Made by a program: the position numbers and the translations under genes. Below, in pieces: positions 9,520-14,575 of a stretch of 64,000 nucleotides of DNA (position 1 is its first letter; each line of letters starts with the position of its first letter). The stretch comes from Akkermansiaceae bacterium. GTDB taxonomy: Bacteria; Verrucomicrobiota; Verrucomicrobiia; Verrucomicrobiales; Akkermansiaceae. The stretch lies in the NCBI GenBank assembly GCA_903919975.1, contig CAIXKE010000023.1:62001-126000 (forward strand). The letters are read 5' to 3'. The notes under the pieces are model-generated. The model had not been told where the DNA came from. It saw nothing but the letters and a program-made list of their open reading frames with translations, and made no database searches.

Positions 9520-12500
9520 TCAACCAAAGTACGCAACGCCGGCTTTGAAGATCGGCTGATGTTTGGTGCCGGGGATGTTTTTGGCGACCTGGGTGCCGGA
9601 GCGTTCGGTGTGGCCCATTTTGCCGAGGACGCGGCCGCAAGGGGACGTGATGCCTTCGATGGCGGCCAAAGAGCCGTTCGGGTTGCGAGCGATGTCCATC
9701 GAGGGGATTCCGGATTCGTCGCAGTATTGGGTGGCGATCTGGCCGGTTTTCGCGAGCTCGGCAATGACGGCATCGCTGGCGTAGAACTTACCTTCACCAT
9801 GGGAGAGCGGGATGGTGTGGATATCGCCGGCTTGGCTGTTAGAAAGCCATGGTGAGAGCGTGCTGACAACACGGGTGTGGGCGTAGCGTGAAATGTGGCG
9901 GCCGATTTCGTTGTGGACGAGTGTCGGCGCATTGGCGGCGGCCTCGCGTATTTCGCCATAGGGCACGAGACCGGTTTTGATGAGGGCTTGGAAGCCGTTG
10001 CAGATGCCGAGGATCAGCCCGTCGCGGTTTTTGAGCAGGTCCATGATGGCATCGGCGACGCGTGGGCTGCGGATGATGGTGGCGATGAATTTGGCGGAGC
10101 CGTCGGGTTCGTCACCCGCGCTGAAACCGCCGGGGAACATGAGGATTTGCGACTGTCGGATTTGCGCGGCGAGGGCTGCGATGGATTCTTCGATGTGATC
10201 AGCAGTTAGATTCCGGAAGACAAGGATCTCGGCGGCGGCTCCGGCTTCACGGAAGGCTTTGGCGGAGTCGTATTCGGAGTTGGTGCCGGGGAAGGCGGGG
10301 ATCAAAACCTTTGGTTTTGAGTGCCGAGTGATCAGTGAGCAGTGATGAGAGGAAGAGAAGAGTGGAGCATCTACGATCTTCGATCCACTATCTTCGATCT
10401 CTTCCGGCCGAGTTGGATAGACGGGTTCTAGGGTGGATTCCCAGGCGGACTGGAGATCGGTGAGTGAGTGGGACTCGCCGTTGAGGATGAGGGATTCTTC
10501 GGCGGTGGTGGTGCCGATGGGTTGGGCGTTGAGGGAGGCGGGGAGTGGCTCGGTGTGTTCTAGGAGGAAGGTGAAGTAGGCTTCGGTGAAGAGGTTGGCT
10601 GTTGGCGGGACGCCAACGCTCGTTGAGTGGAAGCCGATGCGGTTGCCGAAGGCCATTTTGGCGAGGGCGGCGGCTAGGCCGGGGGCTCCGATATGGTGGA
10701 GGGAGAGGAGTTTTCCCTCGGTGTTGAGTTGGTGGAGTTGCGCGGCGGTTTGTTTGAGCGCTTCGAAATTCGGGAGATTGTCGGCATCGCGCGGGACCTC
10801 GACAAGCGAGATGGTGGAGCCGGATTTTTTGAACTCGGGGCTGAGCGCGAGGCTGGCTTTTCCGGGGGCGAGTGCGAAGGAAACGAGGGTGGGCGGAACG
10901 TCGAGTTCGTTGAAGGAACCGGACATCGAGTCCTTGCCGCCGATGGCGGCGAGACGCAGAGAGTGCTGGGCGTAGAATGCACCTAACAACGCAGCGAATG
11001 GCATACCCCAGCGGGATGGATCGTTGCCGAGTTTCGGGAAATATTCCTGAAGAGTGAGGCGAATTTCGGAGAGTTGCGCACCTGCTGCAACGGCTTTGCA
11101 GACGGATTCGGTGACGGCGTAAACCGCGCCGTGGAAGGGGGATTTTTCCGATAGATCGGGATCGAATCCCCAGGACATGTAAGTGCAGGTGTCGGTATCG
11201 CCTTCGAGCAATGGCAGCTTGGCGACCATCGCGTCCGGCGGTGTGATCTGGTGTTTTCCACCAAAGGGCCAGAGCACGGTGCCGGCACCGACCGAGCCGT
11301 CGAACATTTCTCCGAGGCCGCGTTGGGAGGAGACGTTCAAAGAACGCAAGTGATCAGTGAGCAGTGAGCAGTGAACAGTGGAAGAGGGCGGCGGGCAGGA
11401 TGCCCGCGCCACTGTGACGGGAATGGGAACGTCAGCGGGGCGGACGTAGATGACGGGGTCGATAACGAGGAGGGCTTTCCGATTTTCGGACACGAGGACG
11501 TTTTCGTCGTGCAGGTCTTCAATGAGGAGATCGAGTTGCGGAAGGTAGTAATCGTCGTTTTTGTAGCGGAAGGCACCGAAGTGGTCACGCATCCAGACTT
11601 CCACTTCATCGCGACTGGCACCGCCAGCACTGTTTGATGCTTTTGCGAATGGTTGCCGCACCACCATGGAGATTCCAGAGTCCTCCACGAGCAGACCCAG
11701 GAGAGTGTATGCCGTTTCTGGAAAAAGAAGCTGATGGAGGTGGAGGCGTTCGAGATATTGAAGCCAGTTTCCATGAAAATTGCCGTCGTTCGCCTTGATG
11801 ACGGAGCATCCCCGCTCTTCAAAATAAACTCTCTGCTCGGCTCCAGAGATTTTTCCCTGGTGAACCCACTTCTGATTGAAGTCGGCGGCGTTCAGGACCG
11901 GGCAACTTATGCGGCGCAATTCGCGTTCTTCGATTGTGCGTAGGGCGCGCTCGAGCTCGATTCGCTCTTGTCTGTTCTTTGGCTCTGGGATGCCAGCTTT
12001 TTGACTTGCTCGATGAACTCTTGTGAGGATGTCGAGGACTGATTGGCAATTGCCTCCGAGGCGGCTTGCGAAGCCTTGCGATGCGCTTCGTTCAAGTAGG
12101 TTTGTTCGTTGTTCATGGGGATAGGTTACGCTGGGTGTCAAGGGGACGGGTGAGGAAACATGGACTTTGGCGGTTTGTTGGACGCCGTTGGTGTCGAGGA
12201 AGGCGCGGGAGAGATTGACGATGGTTTTTCCGCGCCAAGTCATGACGAGGCGGCCGGAGTCGGTGACGTCGGCGACGTGGACGCAATCGAGGTTTTCCTT
12301 GTCGGCCTCGGCGATGAAATAAGCGATATCCGAGGGATCGACACAGACGGCCATGCGTTCCTGGGATTCGGAGATGGCGAGTTCGGTGCCGTCGAGGCCG
12401 TCGTATTTTTTCGGGACGGCATCGAGGTTGATGACGAGGGACGGCGCGATCTCGCCGATGGCGACTGAGACGCCGCCGGCTCCGAAGTCGTTGCAAATTT

Positions 12501-13983
12501 TGATTTTGCGGGTGAGTTCCGGGTTGCGGAAAAGCCGTTGAATTTTGCGCTCGGTGGGGGCGTCGCCTTTCTGGACTTCGGCGGAGTTTTCGAGGGCGGT
12601 GTCCGTGTGTTCCTTGGACGAGCCGGTGGCGCCGCCGACGCCATCGCGGCCGGTGCGTCCGCCGATGAGTAGGATGACATCGCCGGGAGCCGGGGTGCCG
12701 CGAAATACGTGTGAGCGCGGGACAGCGGATACGACGGCACCGATTTCGAGGCGCTTGGCGACATAGCCGGGGTGATAGACTTCCGCAACTTGGCCGGTGG
12801 CGAGGCCGATTTGATTGCCGTAAGACGAGTATCCTTGCGCGGCGACTTGGCAGATTTTCTTCTGCGGGAGCTTGCCGGGAAGTGTTTCCGCGAAGGGCTT
12901 TAGAGGATTCCCAGCGCCGGTGACGCGCATGGCCTGATAGACATAGGAACGGCCGGATAGAGGATCCCGGATGCAGCCACCAAGGCAGGTGGCGGCACCA
13001 CCGAAGGGCTCGATCTCGGTGGGGTGGTTGTGGGTCTCGTTTTTGAACATGACGAGCCACTCCTCCGTCGTGGAATTTTGAATAGTGACGGGGACGACGA
13101 TGGAGGCGGCGTTGACTTCTTCGGAGACTTCGAGGTTGTCGAGCTCGCCGGAGGCGCGGAGTTCGCGCATGCCGATGAGGGCAATGTCCATCAGGGTGAC
13201 GGGCTTGCCGGAGCGACCGAGGCTTTCACGGGTTTCCTGATAGGTTTTCCAGGCGCGCTGGATGGGAGCAGTGCCTTCGGAGTCGAAGGTGACTTCGTCG
13301 ATCTTGGTTAGAAATGTCGTGTGGCGGCAGTGATCGGACCAATAGGTATCGAGCATCCGCAGTTCGGTGATGCTGGGCTCGCGTTTTTCCTCATCGCGGA
13401 AATAGGCCTGGCAGAAAGCGACATCCTCGGCGGACATGGCGAGGCCGAGATCGGCACGGATGGCGGCGGGGTTTTGGGTGGTGAATCCTTCCAAAATGCG
13501 GACATCTTTCGGAAGGTGTTGGGCTTGGCGGATGCAATCCGCCGCCACGGGGACCTCGTGGGAATCTACGGCGTTGATGACGTAGTTTTTGATGGCGGAG
13601 ATTTCCTCGTTAGAAAGGGCTCCTTCGAGGATGATGACTTTAGCGGAGAAAACCACAGGGCGGTCTTTGCCGGTGAGAATTTGGACGCATTGGGCGGCGG
13701 AATCCGCGCGTTGATCGAATTGGCCGGGGAGATACTCGACGGCGAAGGCGGTTTCGTTTTCCGCGAGTGAGAGCGTGGAAAAAACATCATCCACCTGAGG
13801 CTCCGAGAGGATGTGGGTGGCGGCTTCGTGGAACTCGGCCACGGTGAGTCCATCGATGTCGTAGCGCTGGACCAAGCGGACGTTTTTCAGGCCGGGGAGG
13901 CCGAGGGATTCGCGGAGATCATGCAGGAGGTGGCGCGCCCCGGCATTGTGGGCGGGCTTTTTTTCAACGAAAATGCGGTTCAT
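9520..13983 (-). CDS. purL: Phosphoribosylformylglycinamidine synthase (single-chain PurL) with a large in-frame insert
   Basis: This is the fourth step of purine synthesis: FGAR + Gln + ATP to FGAM. The start MNRIFVEKKPAHNAGARHLL and the overall order match the long single-chain PurL of clostridial type. N-terminal domain comes first, then the first FGAM-synthase half (YWSDHCRHTTF, KNETHNHPTEIEPFGGAATC), the second half (SLNVSSQRGLGEMFDGSVGA, IGGKDSMSGSF), and a C-terminal class I glutaminase (PGTNSEYDSA, catalytic Cys in LGICNGFQAL, His in SHGEGKFYASD). The family is usually about 1240 residues; this one is 1487. The surplus is a single insert at residues 623-879, exactly between the two halves, described separately. 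The frame is open throughout, so a fused enzyme could be made. The linker before the glutaminase also contains repeat-derived sequence. No other purine gene is adjacent. Confidence 0.93.
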   Translation of the reverse strand: MNRIFVEKKPAHNAGARHLLHDLRESLGLPGLKNVRLVQRYDIDGLTVAEFHEAATHILSEPQVDDVFSTLSLAENETAFAVEYLPGQFDQRADSAAQCVQILTGKDRPVVFSAKVIILEGALSNEEISAIKNYVINAVDSHEVPVAADCIRQAQHLPKDVRILEGFTTQNPAAIRADLGLAMSAEDVAFCQAYFRDEEKREPSITELRMLDTYWSDHCRHTTFLTKIDEVTFDSEGTAPIQRAWKTYQETRESLGRSGKPVTLMDIALIGMRELRASGELDNLEVSEEVNAASIVVPVTIQNSTTEEWLVMFKNETHNHPTEIEPFGGAATCLGGCIRDPLSGRSYVYQAMRVTGAGNPLKPFAETLPGKLPQKKICQVAAQGYSSYGNQIGLATGQVAEVYHPGYVAKRLEIGAVVSAVPRSHVFRGTPAPGDVILLIGGRTGRDGVGGATGSSKEHTDTALENSAEVQKGDAPTERKIQRLFRNPELTRKIKICNDFGAGGVSVAIGEIAPSLVINLDAVPKKYDGLDGTELAISESQERMAVCVDPSDIAYFIAEADKENLDCVHVADVTDSGRLVMTWRGKTIVNLSRAFLDTNGVQQTAKVHVSSPVPLTPSVTYPHEQRTNLLERSASQGFASRLGGNCQSVLDILTRVHRASQKAGIPEPKNRQERIELERALRTIEERELRRISCPVLNAADFNQKWVHQGKISGAEQRVYFEERGCSVIKANDGNFHGNWLQYLERLHLHQLLFPETAYTLLGLLVEDSGISMVVRQPFAKASNSAGGASRDEVEVWMRDHFGAFRYKNDDYYLPQLDLLIEDLHDENVLVSENRKALLVIDPVIYVRPADVPIPVTVARASCPPPSSTVHCSLLTDHLRSLNVSSQRGLGEMFDGSVGAGTVLWPFGGKHQITPPDAMVAKLPLLEGDTDTCTYMSWGFDPDLSEKSPFHGAVYAVTESVCKAVAAGAQLSEIRLTLQEYFPKLGNDPSRWGMPFAALLGAFYAQHSLRLAAIGGKDSMSGSFNELDVPPTLVSFALAPGKASLALSPEFKKSGSTISLVEVPRDADNLPNFEALKQTAAQLHQLNTEGKLLSLHHIGAPGLAAALAKMAFGNRIGFHSTSVGVPPTANLFTEAYFTFLLEHTEPLPASLNAQPIGTTTAEESLILNGESHSLTDLQSAWESTLEPVYPTRPEEIEDSGSKIVDAPLFSSSHHCSLITRHSKPKVLIPAFPGTNSEYDSAKAFREAGAAAEILVFRNLTADHIEESIAALAAQIRQSQILMFPGGFSAGDEPDGSAKFIATIIRSPRVADAIMDLLKNRDGLILGICNGFQALIKTGLVPYGEIREAAANAPTLVHNEIGRHISRYAHTRVVSTLSPWLSNSQAGDIHTIPLSHGEGKFYASDAVIAELAKTGQIATQYCDESGIPSMDIARNPNGSLAAIEGITSPCGRVLGKMGHTERSGTQVAKNIPGTKHQPIFKAGVAYFG
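10326..10355. repeat. Repeat-derived segment inside purL (glutaminase linker)
   Basis: Contains AGTGATCAGTGAGCAGTGAT. The core AGTGATCAGTGAGCAGTGA is shared with the edge of the kinase-like insert at 11349-11367. On the purL strand it encodes SSSHHCSLITRHS, which lies in the variable linker between the synthase and glutaminase domains. Confidence 0.6.
11341..11419. repeat. Repeat-derived segment inside purL (end of the insert)
   Basis: Two intergenic-repeat motifs are fused here: the GATCAGTGAGCAGTGAGCAG tract (11352 onward) and, around 11390-11412, a hairpin GCGGGCA-GGAT-GCCCGCG. On the purL strand they are read as VARASCPPPSSTVHCSLLTD. They mark the right edge of the foreign insert. Confidence 0.6.
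11347..12117 (-). other. 257-residue in-frame insert in PurL: kinase-like (polyvalent-protein kinase type) domain
   Basis: PurL residues 623-879 have no counterpart in ordinary PurL. Residues about 670-710 are charged and helical (RQERIELERALRTIEEREL). A kinase-like domain then follows: GAEQRVYFEERGCSVIKAND (residues 714-733, candidate Lys730), a helix with LHLHQLLFPETAYTLLGLL, the lobe hinge MVVRQPFAKA, a catalytic-loop-like EDLHDENVLV (822-831) and VIDPVIYV (840-847) in the place of a DFG-like metal site. This pattern resembles the putative polyvalent-protein kinase domains carried by phages and conjugative elements. The insert ends in VARASCPPPSSTVHCSLLTD, which is translated intergenic-repeat DNA. 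It has an ATG of its own at 12116 in a different frame. Whether the domain is active or is merely tolerated is unknown. Confidence 0.7.
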
Positions 13984-14072: not shown

Positions 14073-14333
14073 TCAACCATCGTAATGGAAACGGCATTGC
14101 ATGATCAGCAGGCTTTCCGCTTCGACTTTATAAATGAGACGATGCTCTTGAGTGATGCGGCGCGACCACCAGCCTTTGAGGTTGTTTTTGAGGGGCTCCG
14201 GTTTGCCGATCCCGGAATACGGATTTCGCAGGGCGTCTTTGATGACTTCATTGACCCGCTGGAGGATCTTTTTGTCATTTTCCTGCCAATAAAGATAGTC
14301 CTTCCAGCCGTTGGGCAACCAGGTCAATCGCAT
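14073..14333 (-). CDS. yoeB: Toxin YoeB (RelE/YoeB family mRNA interferase)
   Basis: 86 residues. YoeB is a ribosome-dependent endoribonuclease that cuts mRNA in the A site and stops translation. The sequence aligns position for position with E. coli YoeB: the catalytic residues Glu46 (GKPE), Arg65 (EHRLIY), His83 and Tyr84 (CRFHYDG) fall at the same numbers. The gene follows its antitoxin on the minus strand with a 10-base overlap, typical of this toxin-antitoxin pair. It sits between purL and kamA, with no sign of transfer in base use. Confidence 0.93.
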   Translation of the reverse strand: MRLTWLPNGWKDYLYWQENDKKILQRVNEVIKDALRNPYSGIGKPEPLKNNLKGWWSRRITQEHRLIYKVEAESLLIMQCRFHYDG

Positions 14334-14575
14334 AGCTCGCCTTCCTGAATTTTCCCCGCATCATAGTCCGCGAGGCTTTGTTGAATCTGGTCCGCGTTGG
14401 CCCGGGTGGAAAAAAGGTGCAGCGTCGTTTCCATCGCCTCATATTCCTCGATGGCGAGCAAGACGACCTTGCCGGCACCGTTACGGGTGATGGTGATTGG
14501 CTCCCGGTCGCGGGAGGCCGTTTCCATGAGGCCCGCCAGTTGGTTTCGGGCGTCGGTATAATTGATGGTTTGCAT
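14324..14575 (-). CDS. yefM: Antitoxin YefM (Phd/YefM family)
   Basis: 83 residues. The N-terminal fold (NYTDARNQLAGLMETASRDR, then EPITITRNGAGKVVLLAIEE followed by YEAMETTL) is the Phd/YefM DNA-binding and dimerisation domain. The acidic C-terminal tail (SLADYDAGKIQEGELCD) would wrap and block YoeB. In this family the antitoxin, helped by the toxin, represses its own promoter; no operator was identified by eye. The overlap with the toxin start suggests translational coupling. Confidence 0.92.
   Translation of the reverse strand: MQTINYTDARNQLAGLMETASRDREPITITRNGAGKVVLLAIEEYEAMETTLHLFSTRANADQIQQSLADYDAGKIQEGELCD

What the first reader, a model, noticed from the sequence alone, without database searches (positions are those of the whole stretch)
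11347..12117. Kinase-like domain inserted in frame into PurL
PurL is about 250 residues too long. The excess, residues 623-879, sits precisely between the two internally duplicated halves of the synthase and reads as a kinase-like domain (IKAN, DLHDENVLV, IDPVIYV) of the type carried by polyvalent proteins of phages and conjugative elements. Both flanks keep the PurL frame, so an essential purine enzyme may be made as a fusion with a mobile-element domain. Possibilities: a tolerated insertion, a spliced or proteolysed insert, or a regulatory domain acting on purine synthesis.
Basis: partly seen in the sequence, partly recalled or inferred. Interest (0 to 1): 0.82.

Follow-up and report, generated by a model that had tools for sequence, protein, structure and literature searches.

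The report
Two-gene kinase module inside essential enzymes
In this bacterium and its relatives a kinase gene, together with a second small gene hidden in another reading frame, sits in frame inside the genes of two enzymes that cells normally cannot do without (a purine-making enzyme and DNA ligase), which looks like a natural case of a possibly toxic gene pair made hard to lose by welding it to host genes.

Summary
PurL (window 9520-13983, minus strand) carries about 250 extra residues between its synthase halves, in frame, with an intact Kinase-PolyVal domain (PF18762, E 1e-30). It is not an assembly error: 14 genomes carry the insert, including the isolate Roseibacillus ishigakijimensis KCTC 12986, and it is under purifying selection.

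The finding is larger than reported. (1) Two other kinase subfamilies sit in frame elsewhere: in LigA (33 of 60 readable genomes of the genus, this one included) and at a second PurL site (3 of 63). (2) Every insert with a complete 5' part holds a second gene (51-84 codons) in the +1 frame over the start of the kinase part (window 11907-12116). It shows no stops in the aligned overlap, protein-level selection (clear in LigA, weaker in PurL), and a conserved promoter-like element before it. (3) Most stand-alone kinases examined in Verrucomicrobiota and Bacteroidota have such an ORF too. (4) Three partial deletions lost the kinase and kept the small gene; no intact insert lacked it.

Best reading: an overlapping small-protein/kinase pair, probably toxin-antitoxin-like, embedded in essential genes. 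The architecture is well supported; the toxin-antitoxin function is inferred (about 0.5).

The parts
9520..13983 (-). purL, single-chain FGAM synthase, 1487 aa with the insert
   Evidence: open frame; TIGR01857; GATase_5, AIRS_C, FGAR-AT linker
12154..13983 (-). PurL N-terminal part and first synthase half (residues 1-610)
   Evidence: alignment with relatives
11410..12153 (-). insert: promoter-like element, small +1 gene and kinase, continuous in the PurL frame (about residues 611-858)
   Evidence: absent from 53 of 63 genomes, present in 9, partly deleted in 1
12123..12141 (-). promoter-like element TTGACA (12141-12136), 7 nt, TAACCT (12128-12123), 6 nt before the small gene's ATG
   Evidence: same spacing in 9 of 9 PurL inserts of the genus and 13 of 13 named PurL-insert loci, together 14 distinct genomes; window letters checked
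11907..12116 (-). small gene in the +1 frame, 69 aa (MNNEQTYLNEAHRKASQ...)
   Evidence: no stop in +1 over 518 aligned codons of 9 PurL inserts against 22 in +2; pN/pS of +1 .59 in the overlap against 1.38 outside it (4 pairs)
11443..11853 (-). Kinase-PolyVal core (PF18762), residues 711-847; K730, D823, N828, D842 kept
11380..12090 (-). stretch modelled alone: helical N part and kinase fold, mean pLDDT 86.9, pTM .83
   Evidence: fold searches
11344..11409 (-). linker from two interspersed repeats (GCGGGCATCCTGCCCGC palindrome and TTCACTG-type)
   Evidence: all 34 further matches of the insert DNA in this genome fall in this stretch; similar peptides in empty PurL linkers
9520..11343 (-). PurL second synthase half and glutaminase domain

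Best explanation
The insert is a compact two-gene unit. One frame codes for a Kinase-PolyVal protein kinase; overlapping its start, one base out of frame, lies a second gene for a small protein (51-84 aa in the inserts). As a free gene pair it occurs in Verrucomicrobiota and Bacteroidota. In this genus such units have become embedded in frame in purL (two sites) and ligA, so that the host frame runs through the small-gene region and the kinase and out into the rest of the enzyme. The kinase is then made as a domain of the enzyme, while the small protein is probably made separately from a promoter inside the host gene, as a leaderless or nearly leaderless message. I infer that the small protein restrains the kinase (toxin-antitoxin-like), so the unit persists because the kinase cannot be silenced or broken by frameshift without losing the enzyme. 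It is lost only by in-frame deletion, with the kinase going first. Shown: intact kinase in frame, +1 gene under selection, conserved upstream element, recurrence at three sites, patchy presence. Inferred: separate expression, that the kinase is toxic, and that the small protein neutralises it.
For: Kinase: PF18762 E 1e-30. In 53 aligned kinases E85 and Q146 are invariant, K99 is kept in 52, D192 in 51, N197 in 52 and D211 in 51. Fold search: the 50 PDB hits listed are kinase or pseudokinase structures (best E 8.5e-4, only that one under .001, TM-scores by query length .27-.38); best viral hit a phage polyvalent protein, E 4.9e-8, TM .59. Purifying selection outside the overlap: dN/dS .03-.23 in 6 PurL pairs.05-.40 in the 11 of 12 LigA pairs with unsaturated dS.10-.11 in 3 second-site PurL pairs. 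Small gene: in the aligned overlap 0 stops in +1 over 1678 codons of LigA inserts (79 in +2) and 0 over 518 codons of 9 PurL inserts (22 in +2). pN/pS in the LigA overlap is .36 in +1 and 1.03 in the kinase frame; outside it 1.51 and .24 (14 pairs). Codon-position diversity shifts accordingly. Upstream element: TTGAC exactly 36 nt before the start in 34 of 36 LigA inserts with a complete 5' part, in both LigA partial deletions and in 3 of 3 second-site PurL inserts; the same phase and spacing occurs at 0 of 25127 codon positions of these ligA genes outside the insert. The element holds the same DNA while the kinase-frame amino acid changes (codon before Asp: GTT 17, ATT 11, CTT 5, TTT 1), and T-ending codons are only 6-15% of those families in this genome's ligA. 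Recurrence. Partial deletions G006, G020 and G032 keep the small gene and lack the kinase core.
Against: No expression, toxicity or binding data exist. In the PurL overlap the contrast between frames is weak (+1 .59, kinase frame .73), and one pair (G018/G070) gives dN/dS .86 in the small gene's frame. The PurL element has a 7-nt spacer, not the 17 of a normal promoter, and the second-site hexamers are CATATT or CAACTT. One PurL insert (G091) has Glu in place of the catalytic Asp. The link between PurL-type and Bacteroidota small proteins is only moderate: profile match 91.9%, E 7e-7 with two bridging rows, 68.4%, E 4.7e-5 without them. The three partial deletions are few, and geometry helps: the small gene is at the 5' end, so a deletion starting later spares it; two further ligA scars, G035 and G036, have lost both. 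Some stand-alone kinases show no such ORF (5 of 39; L233 and L254). The small proteins hit no Pfam family over cut-off, and neither they nor the kinase hit PADLOC. Long retention of the active site could equally mean a useful regulatory kinase.
Confidence: 0.55

Rival explanations
1. Regulatory domain: the kinase domain controls the enzyme that carries it, or its partners, for instance shutting purine synthesis and DNA ligation when a phage is sensed; the small protein is its sensor, activator or substrate.
For: Both hosts act in nucleotide or DNA metabolism, and purL was hit at two sites by two kinase subfamilies. Kinase dN/dS is well below 1 and the active site is kept in nearly every insert.
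Against: Presence is patchy: about 8 changes of state on the host tree for the first PurL site and about 15 for LigA. Close relatives do without it (LigA of G077 has it, of G071 does not). Partial deletions keep the small gene without the kinase.
Confidence: 0.3
2. Tolerated passenger: a mobile-element gene landed in permissive loops, perhaps by recombination at the interspersed repeats, and is merely tolerated; the conserved +1 frame is inherited from the free gene and has no present role.
For: The sites lie in variable linkers already rich in repeat-derived sequence; in G023 the same repeat flanks the insert on both sides and in G073 two copies stand side by side. Patchy presence.
Against: Kinase dN/dS is well below 1 and the +1 frame is constrained between carriers. 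No intact kinase insert without the small gene among 36 LigA inserts with a complete 5' part, 14 PurL first-site genomes and 3 second-site genomes.
Confidence: 0.12
3. The +1 frame is not a gene but a DNA or RNA signal that happens to stay open.
For: Only sequence evidence exists for the small gene; the upstream element is itself a DNA-level signal.
Against: Protein-level signature in +1, clear in LigA, a start codon in every insert examined, and protein similarity across two phyla, though moderate.
Confidence: 0.05

Closest known systems
Kinase-PolyVal domains of polyvalent proteins (Iyer et al. 2017, PMC5512222; the section 'Protein kinases' and search passages read, not the whole text)
   Same: Same domain family, with the glutamate and glutamine the paper names and the active-site residues; described from Verrucomicrobia-Chlamydia and Bacteroidetes (pro)phages and, stand-alone, from Bacteroidetes
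   Different: The kinase section does not mention an overlapping small gene or insertion into host enzymes, and the words 'overlapping' and 'inserted' occur 0 times in the main text
Type II toxin-antitoxin pairs with kinase toxins such as HipBST (recalled; PMC10653801 seen only in the listing)
   Same: Small gene next to or overlapping a kinase gene; the partial states here keep the small gene
   Different: Here the small gene is one base out of frame over the kinase start, and the kinase is welded into an essential enzyme; no toxicity shown
Inteins (recalled)
   Same: In-frame elements inside essential genes with patchy presence
   Different: No splicing domain listed by Pfam or NCBIfam at E up to 1; sits in variable loops; carries a kinase
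Engineered entanglement of relE within ilvA (PMC10359631; abstract and outline read)
   Same: A harmful gene stabilised by overlap with a needed gene
   Different: Engineered; there the toxin is the out-of-frame gene, here the kinase is in frame and the small gene is out of frame

Membership tests
Kinase-PolyVal (PF18762) | Profile match over the curated cut-off | tested here: met
   107.2 bits against 27; LigA copy 47.9 and R. ishigakijimensis PurL 83.6. The second PurL site (G008) is not matched by Pfam but is 42% identical, E 1e-61, to a stand-alone gene of this genome that has a sub-cut-off match
Kinase-PolyVal (PF18762) | Conserved E before strand 2, Q at the end of the N lobe, K-D-N-D active site | tested here: met
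   In 53 rows: E 53, Q 53, K 52, D 51, N 52, D 51; the window's own copy has all
Toxin-antitoxin system | Two adjacent or overlapping genes kept together | tested here: met
   36 of 36 LigA inserts with a complete 5' part, 14 of 14 PurL first-site genomes, 3 of 3 second-site genomes
Toxin-antitoxin system | One product toxic, the other neutralises it | not testable with these tools
   needs expression in a laboratory strain
Toxin-antitoxin system | Putative antitoxin outlives the toxin on decay | tested here: inconclusive
   3 partial deletions keep the small gene, 2 scars lost both; few cases, and geometry favours this outcome
Intein | Hint-type splicing domain | tested here: not met
   Pfam and NCBIfam at E up to 1 list no such domain in PurL or the insert; terminal splice residues were not examined separately

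The most novel reading that the evidence does not exclude
A natural 'gene entanglement' system: a kinase and antidote pair known from two phyla, coded one base out of frame over each other, has at least three times been built in frame into essential enzymes, so that the enzyme itself carries the toxin domain and the antidote is transcribed from a promoter inside the enzyme gene. The host cannot discard the toxin by ordinary mutation.
Probability: 0.4. Interest if true: 0.93.

Novelty: new variant of a known kind. Interest (0 to 1): 0.85.

Why it matters
The Kinase-PolyVal domain was defined from sequence as a predicted weapon of phages and conjugative elements; the listings showed no paper that tests it (the one further paper that holds the name, PMC9758233, was not opened). 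A conserved partner gene gives a direct way to ask what it does. The embedding in purL and ligA is a natural version of a trick that synthetic biologists build to keep harmful genes stable, and a new answer to how selfish or conflict genes survive in genomes. It also warns annotators: a gene of 50-84 codons that overlaps another gene is easily missed. An isolate with the PurL insert makes it testable. The architecture has no precedent that I found; I file it as a new variant because its parts (the kinase, overlapping genes, toxin-antitoxin logic) are each known.

Tried and rejected
Rejected: assembly chimera (14 genomes, one an isolate). Rejected: the +1 ORF as chance, and my first thought that it was the true frame and the PurL frame a chance read-through (both frames are open, and the +1 frame is the more constrained one over the overlap in LigA). 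Rejected: PheT of G069 as a further host (by eye the frame shifts before the end of PheT, so the reading into the kinase looks accidental) and the SDR/kinase reading in G074 (C-terminal run-on, not followed).

Led nowhere: a viral-contig scan with the PurL-type kinase found no relative. The AlphaFold model of the kinase within PurL was poor (pLDDT 68, pTM .57) and is not used. The small proteins gave nothing over cut-off in Pfam (5 proteins) and nothing in PADLOC (2 small proteins and 2 kinase inserts). Paper searches for nested antitoxins or for insertions in PurL or LigA listed nothing of this kind. The direction of change (many losses or some transfers) was not settled: the 9-row insert tree agrees with the host for most rows but places G076 with the G002 group.

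Limits of counts. PurL and LigA were fetched from those genomes of the genus where a match could be placed, not from all 73. The tree counts are approximate: G019 is scored as lacking the LigA insert although its LigA is split over contigs, and G034, whose PurL does not span the site, is scored as lacking that insert. Pairs for dN/dS and pN/pS were chosen by hand; of 12 LigA pairs one (G001/G011) had saturated dS and is left out of the quoted range. The count of TTGAC by codon was made only on loci that have TTGAC, so by itself it shows the spread of amino acids, not the rate; the rate (34 of 36) and a control are. In one search I examined 52 of the 70 loci: 47 have an ATG-started +1 ORF of 40 codons or more at the kinase start (13 of 13 PurL, 34 of 39 others; L279, L287, L322 and L323 had none and L293's was not counted); I did not test each for homology. 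For the profile comparison 13 of the 22 small proteins that came from loci were aligned (12 Bacteroidota, 1 Verrucomicrobia by record title); leaving out the two rows nearest the PurL type lowered the match.

Full report
CHECK OF THE OBSERVATION. The minus-strand ORF 9520-13983 is open over 1487 codons. It scores as a complete single-chain FGAM synthase, with PF18762 Kinase-PolyVal at residues 711-847. In the first set of relatives most same-genus PurL are about 1250 aa and lack this part. After extending to the 73 genomes of the genus that are held, 63 have a fetched frame spanning the site: 9 with the insert, 1 with a 66-aa remnant (G032), 53 without; 2 more could not be read across. One is an isolate, Roseibacillus ishigakijimensis KCTC 12986 (L262). 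The nearest named carrier is an Akkermansiaceae MAG (L258). The window's genome shows this PurL alone.

WHAT THE INSERT ENCODES, FRAME 0. The insert modelled alone folds well (pLDDT 86.9, pTM .83). The 50 listed PDB hits are kinase or pseudokinase structures, though with modest scores (best E 8.5e-4, TM up to .38); the best viral hits are phage polyvalent proteins (E 4.9e-8). The conserved residues are in place (K730, D823, N828, D842 in the window); one PurL insert, G091, has Glu for the catalytic Asp. Outside the overlap described next, kinase dN/dS is .03-.23 in 6 PurL pairs.05-.40 in 11 of 12 LigA pairs (the twelfth had saturated dS) and .10-.11 in 3 second-site PurL pairs. For comparison it is .02-.10 for a PurL core segment in 3 pairs.

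A SECOND GENE, FRAME +1. Over the first part of the insert runs a 69-codon ORF, 12116 to 11907. All 9 PurL inserts of the genus have it, with an ATG and a common sequence, and so do all 13 named PurL-insert loci. The LigA inserts have a counterpart of 68-84 codons with a common motif (MTSEQAMEQMFRNGSDRKPNP in this genome); all 36 with a complete 5' part have it, one with a GTG start, and two more are cut by contig ends. The second-site PurL inserts have one of 51 codons in 3 of 3. Pooled pN/pS in the LigA overlap is .36 for +1, 1.03 for the kinase frame and 1.85 for +2; outside it is 1.51.24 and 1.99 (14 pairs). For PurL (4 pairs) it is .59.73 and 1.43 in the overlap and 1.38.31 and 2.05 outside. 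No stop occurs in +1 over 1678 aligned codons of LigA inserts or 518 of PurL inserts, against 79 and 22 in +2. So over the overlap the small gene is the frame under selection in LigA, and both frames share a weaker constraint in PurL.

AN UPSTREAM ELEMENT. In ligA, TTGAC stands exactly 36 nt before the small gene's start in 34 of 36 inserts with a complete 5' part (exceptions G018 and G066) and in both partial deletions. It is followed after 17 nt by a TAT/TAC-type hexamer in most and then 7 nt to the start: the layout of a promoter whose message would begin at or near the ATG. The same arrangement in the same phase occurs at 0 of 25127 codon positions of these ligA genes outside the insert. 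The DNA is kept while the kinase-frame amino acid before Asp changes (GTT 17, ATT 11, CTT 5, TTT 1); in this genome's ligA T-ending codons are 5 of 53 for Val, 6 of 60 for Ile, 6 of 101 for CTN-Leu and 5 of 34 for Phe. The second-site PurL inserts show TTGACA at the same distance in 3 of 3, with CATATT or CAACTT as hexamer. At the first PurL site the element reads TTGACA (TTGACG in one genome, TTAACA in two), 7 nt, TANNNT, 6 nt, ATG, in 9 of 9 and 13 of 13. The 7-nt spacer is not that of an ordinary promoter, and I do not know how it would be read. No ribosome-binding site was evident by eye.

OTHER HOSTS. The second PF18762 copy of this genome lies in ligA on contig C37: the adenylation domain is split and the kinase sits between. 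Across the genus 33 of 60 LigA whose frame spans the site have an insert, 25 do not and 2 are partial; 8 could not be read across. One of those 8, G069, has a frame break just before the insert. A different genus of the family shows it too, by eye (G337, L247). At a second PurL site (residue about 300), 3 of 63 carry a third subfamily (G008, G090, G092), 42% identical to a stand-alone gene of this genome.

FREE RELATIVES. Stand-alone kinases in this genus, in other Verrucomicrobiota and in Bacteroidota usually have a +1 ORF at the same place: 34 of 39 non-PurL loci examined. In Bacteroidota it is about 49 aa with a common sequence, and an in-frame kinase ATG lies 7-28 nt before it in 16 of 22 loci examined (21 of them Bacteroidota). 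The Bacteroidota and PurL-type small proteins match by profile with 91.9%, E 7e-7 when two bridging rows are included and 68.4%, E 4.7e-5 when they are left out, so common descent is likely but not certain. Large multi-domain proteins of G077 (two) and G071 (one) that look like phage polyvalent proteins carry the same arrangement. PF18762 itself is found in 49 of 73 genomes of the genus but 19 of 288 drawn from the phylum, own genus included.

HISTORY. On a tree of PurL and LigA cores (65 rows) the first-site PurL insert needs about 8 changes of state and the LigA insert about 15 (scoring limits in Tried and rejected). The tree of the 9 PurL inserts mostly follows the host (G000 with G023; G002, G012 and G024 together), with G076 odd. 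The simplest reading is old insertions, often lost, with some transfer possible. Partial states: G006 and G020 (ligA) and G032 (purL) lack the kinase core and keep the small gene, with the upstream element. G035 and G036 appear, by eye, to keep only a scar of the upstream region. No intact kinase insert lacked the small gene. Geometry favours this order, so I count it as suggestive only.

MECHANISM. Shown: a kinase welded in frame into two enzymes, and a conserved small gene out of frame with a conserved element before it. Inferred: the small protein is made separately and restrains the kinase. That PurL and LigA are essential or conditionally essential is established knowledge, not tested here. 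The main rival is a useful regulatory or defensive kinase domain; the preference for two nucleotide/DNA enzymes speaks for it, patchiness against it.

NOVELTY. The domain is known (PMC5512222; section on protein kinases read). I found no description of its overlapping partner or of its embedding in PurL or LigA in the searches, in a library that lacks most subscription papers.

The TTGAC rate, its control, the Glu in G091 and the profile match without bridging rows were added or corrected. They cut both ways and I left the odds as they were.

Noticed in passing
window 14073-14575 (-): A YefM/YoeB toxin-antitoxin pair lies about 90 bases upstream of purL (PF06769 E 6e-38, PF02604 E 2e-21).
   Followed up: partly
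L222:285-2378 (genome contig C90): This genome holds a second, only about 36% identical NAD-dependent ligase without an insert; foreign or contaminant origin not settled.
   Followed up: no
window 11344-11409 and the stretch before the glutaminase domain (HHCSLITRHSK): Interspersed short repeats are read in frame as linker peptides in PurL, and similar ones (QNSKFKI) in LigA of several relatives, with or without the kinase.
   Followed up: partly
L341 (R. ishigakijimensis, G373:C22:74518-75060): A decayed second kinase copy with two stops in the isolate that carries the PurL insert.
   Followed up: no
L132 and L157: Large multi-domain proteins (open frames of 872, 1688 and 1950 codons) that look like phage polyvalent proteins carry the kinase with a small +1 ORF inside them.
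   Followed up: partly
L328 (G069): PheT reads on into a kinase gene after an apparent frame shift; probably accidental.
   Followed up: partly
G010, G069 and G082 PurL or LigA: Some genomes have broken PurL or LigA frames, assembly errors or decay.
   Followed up: no
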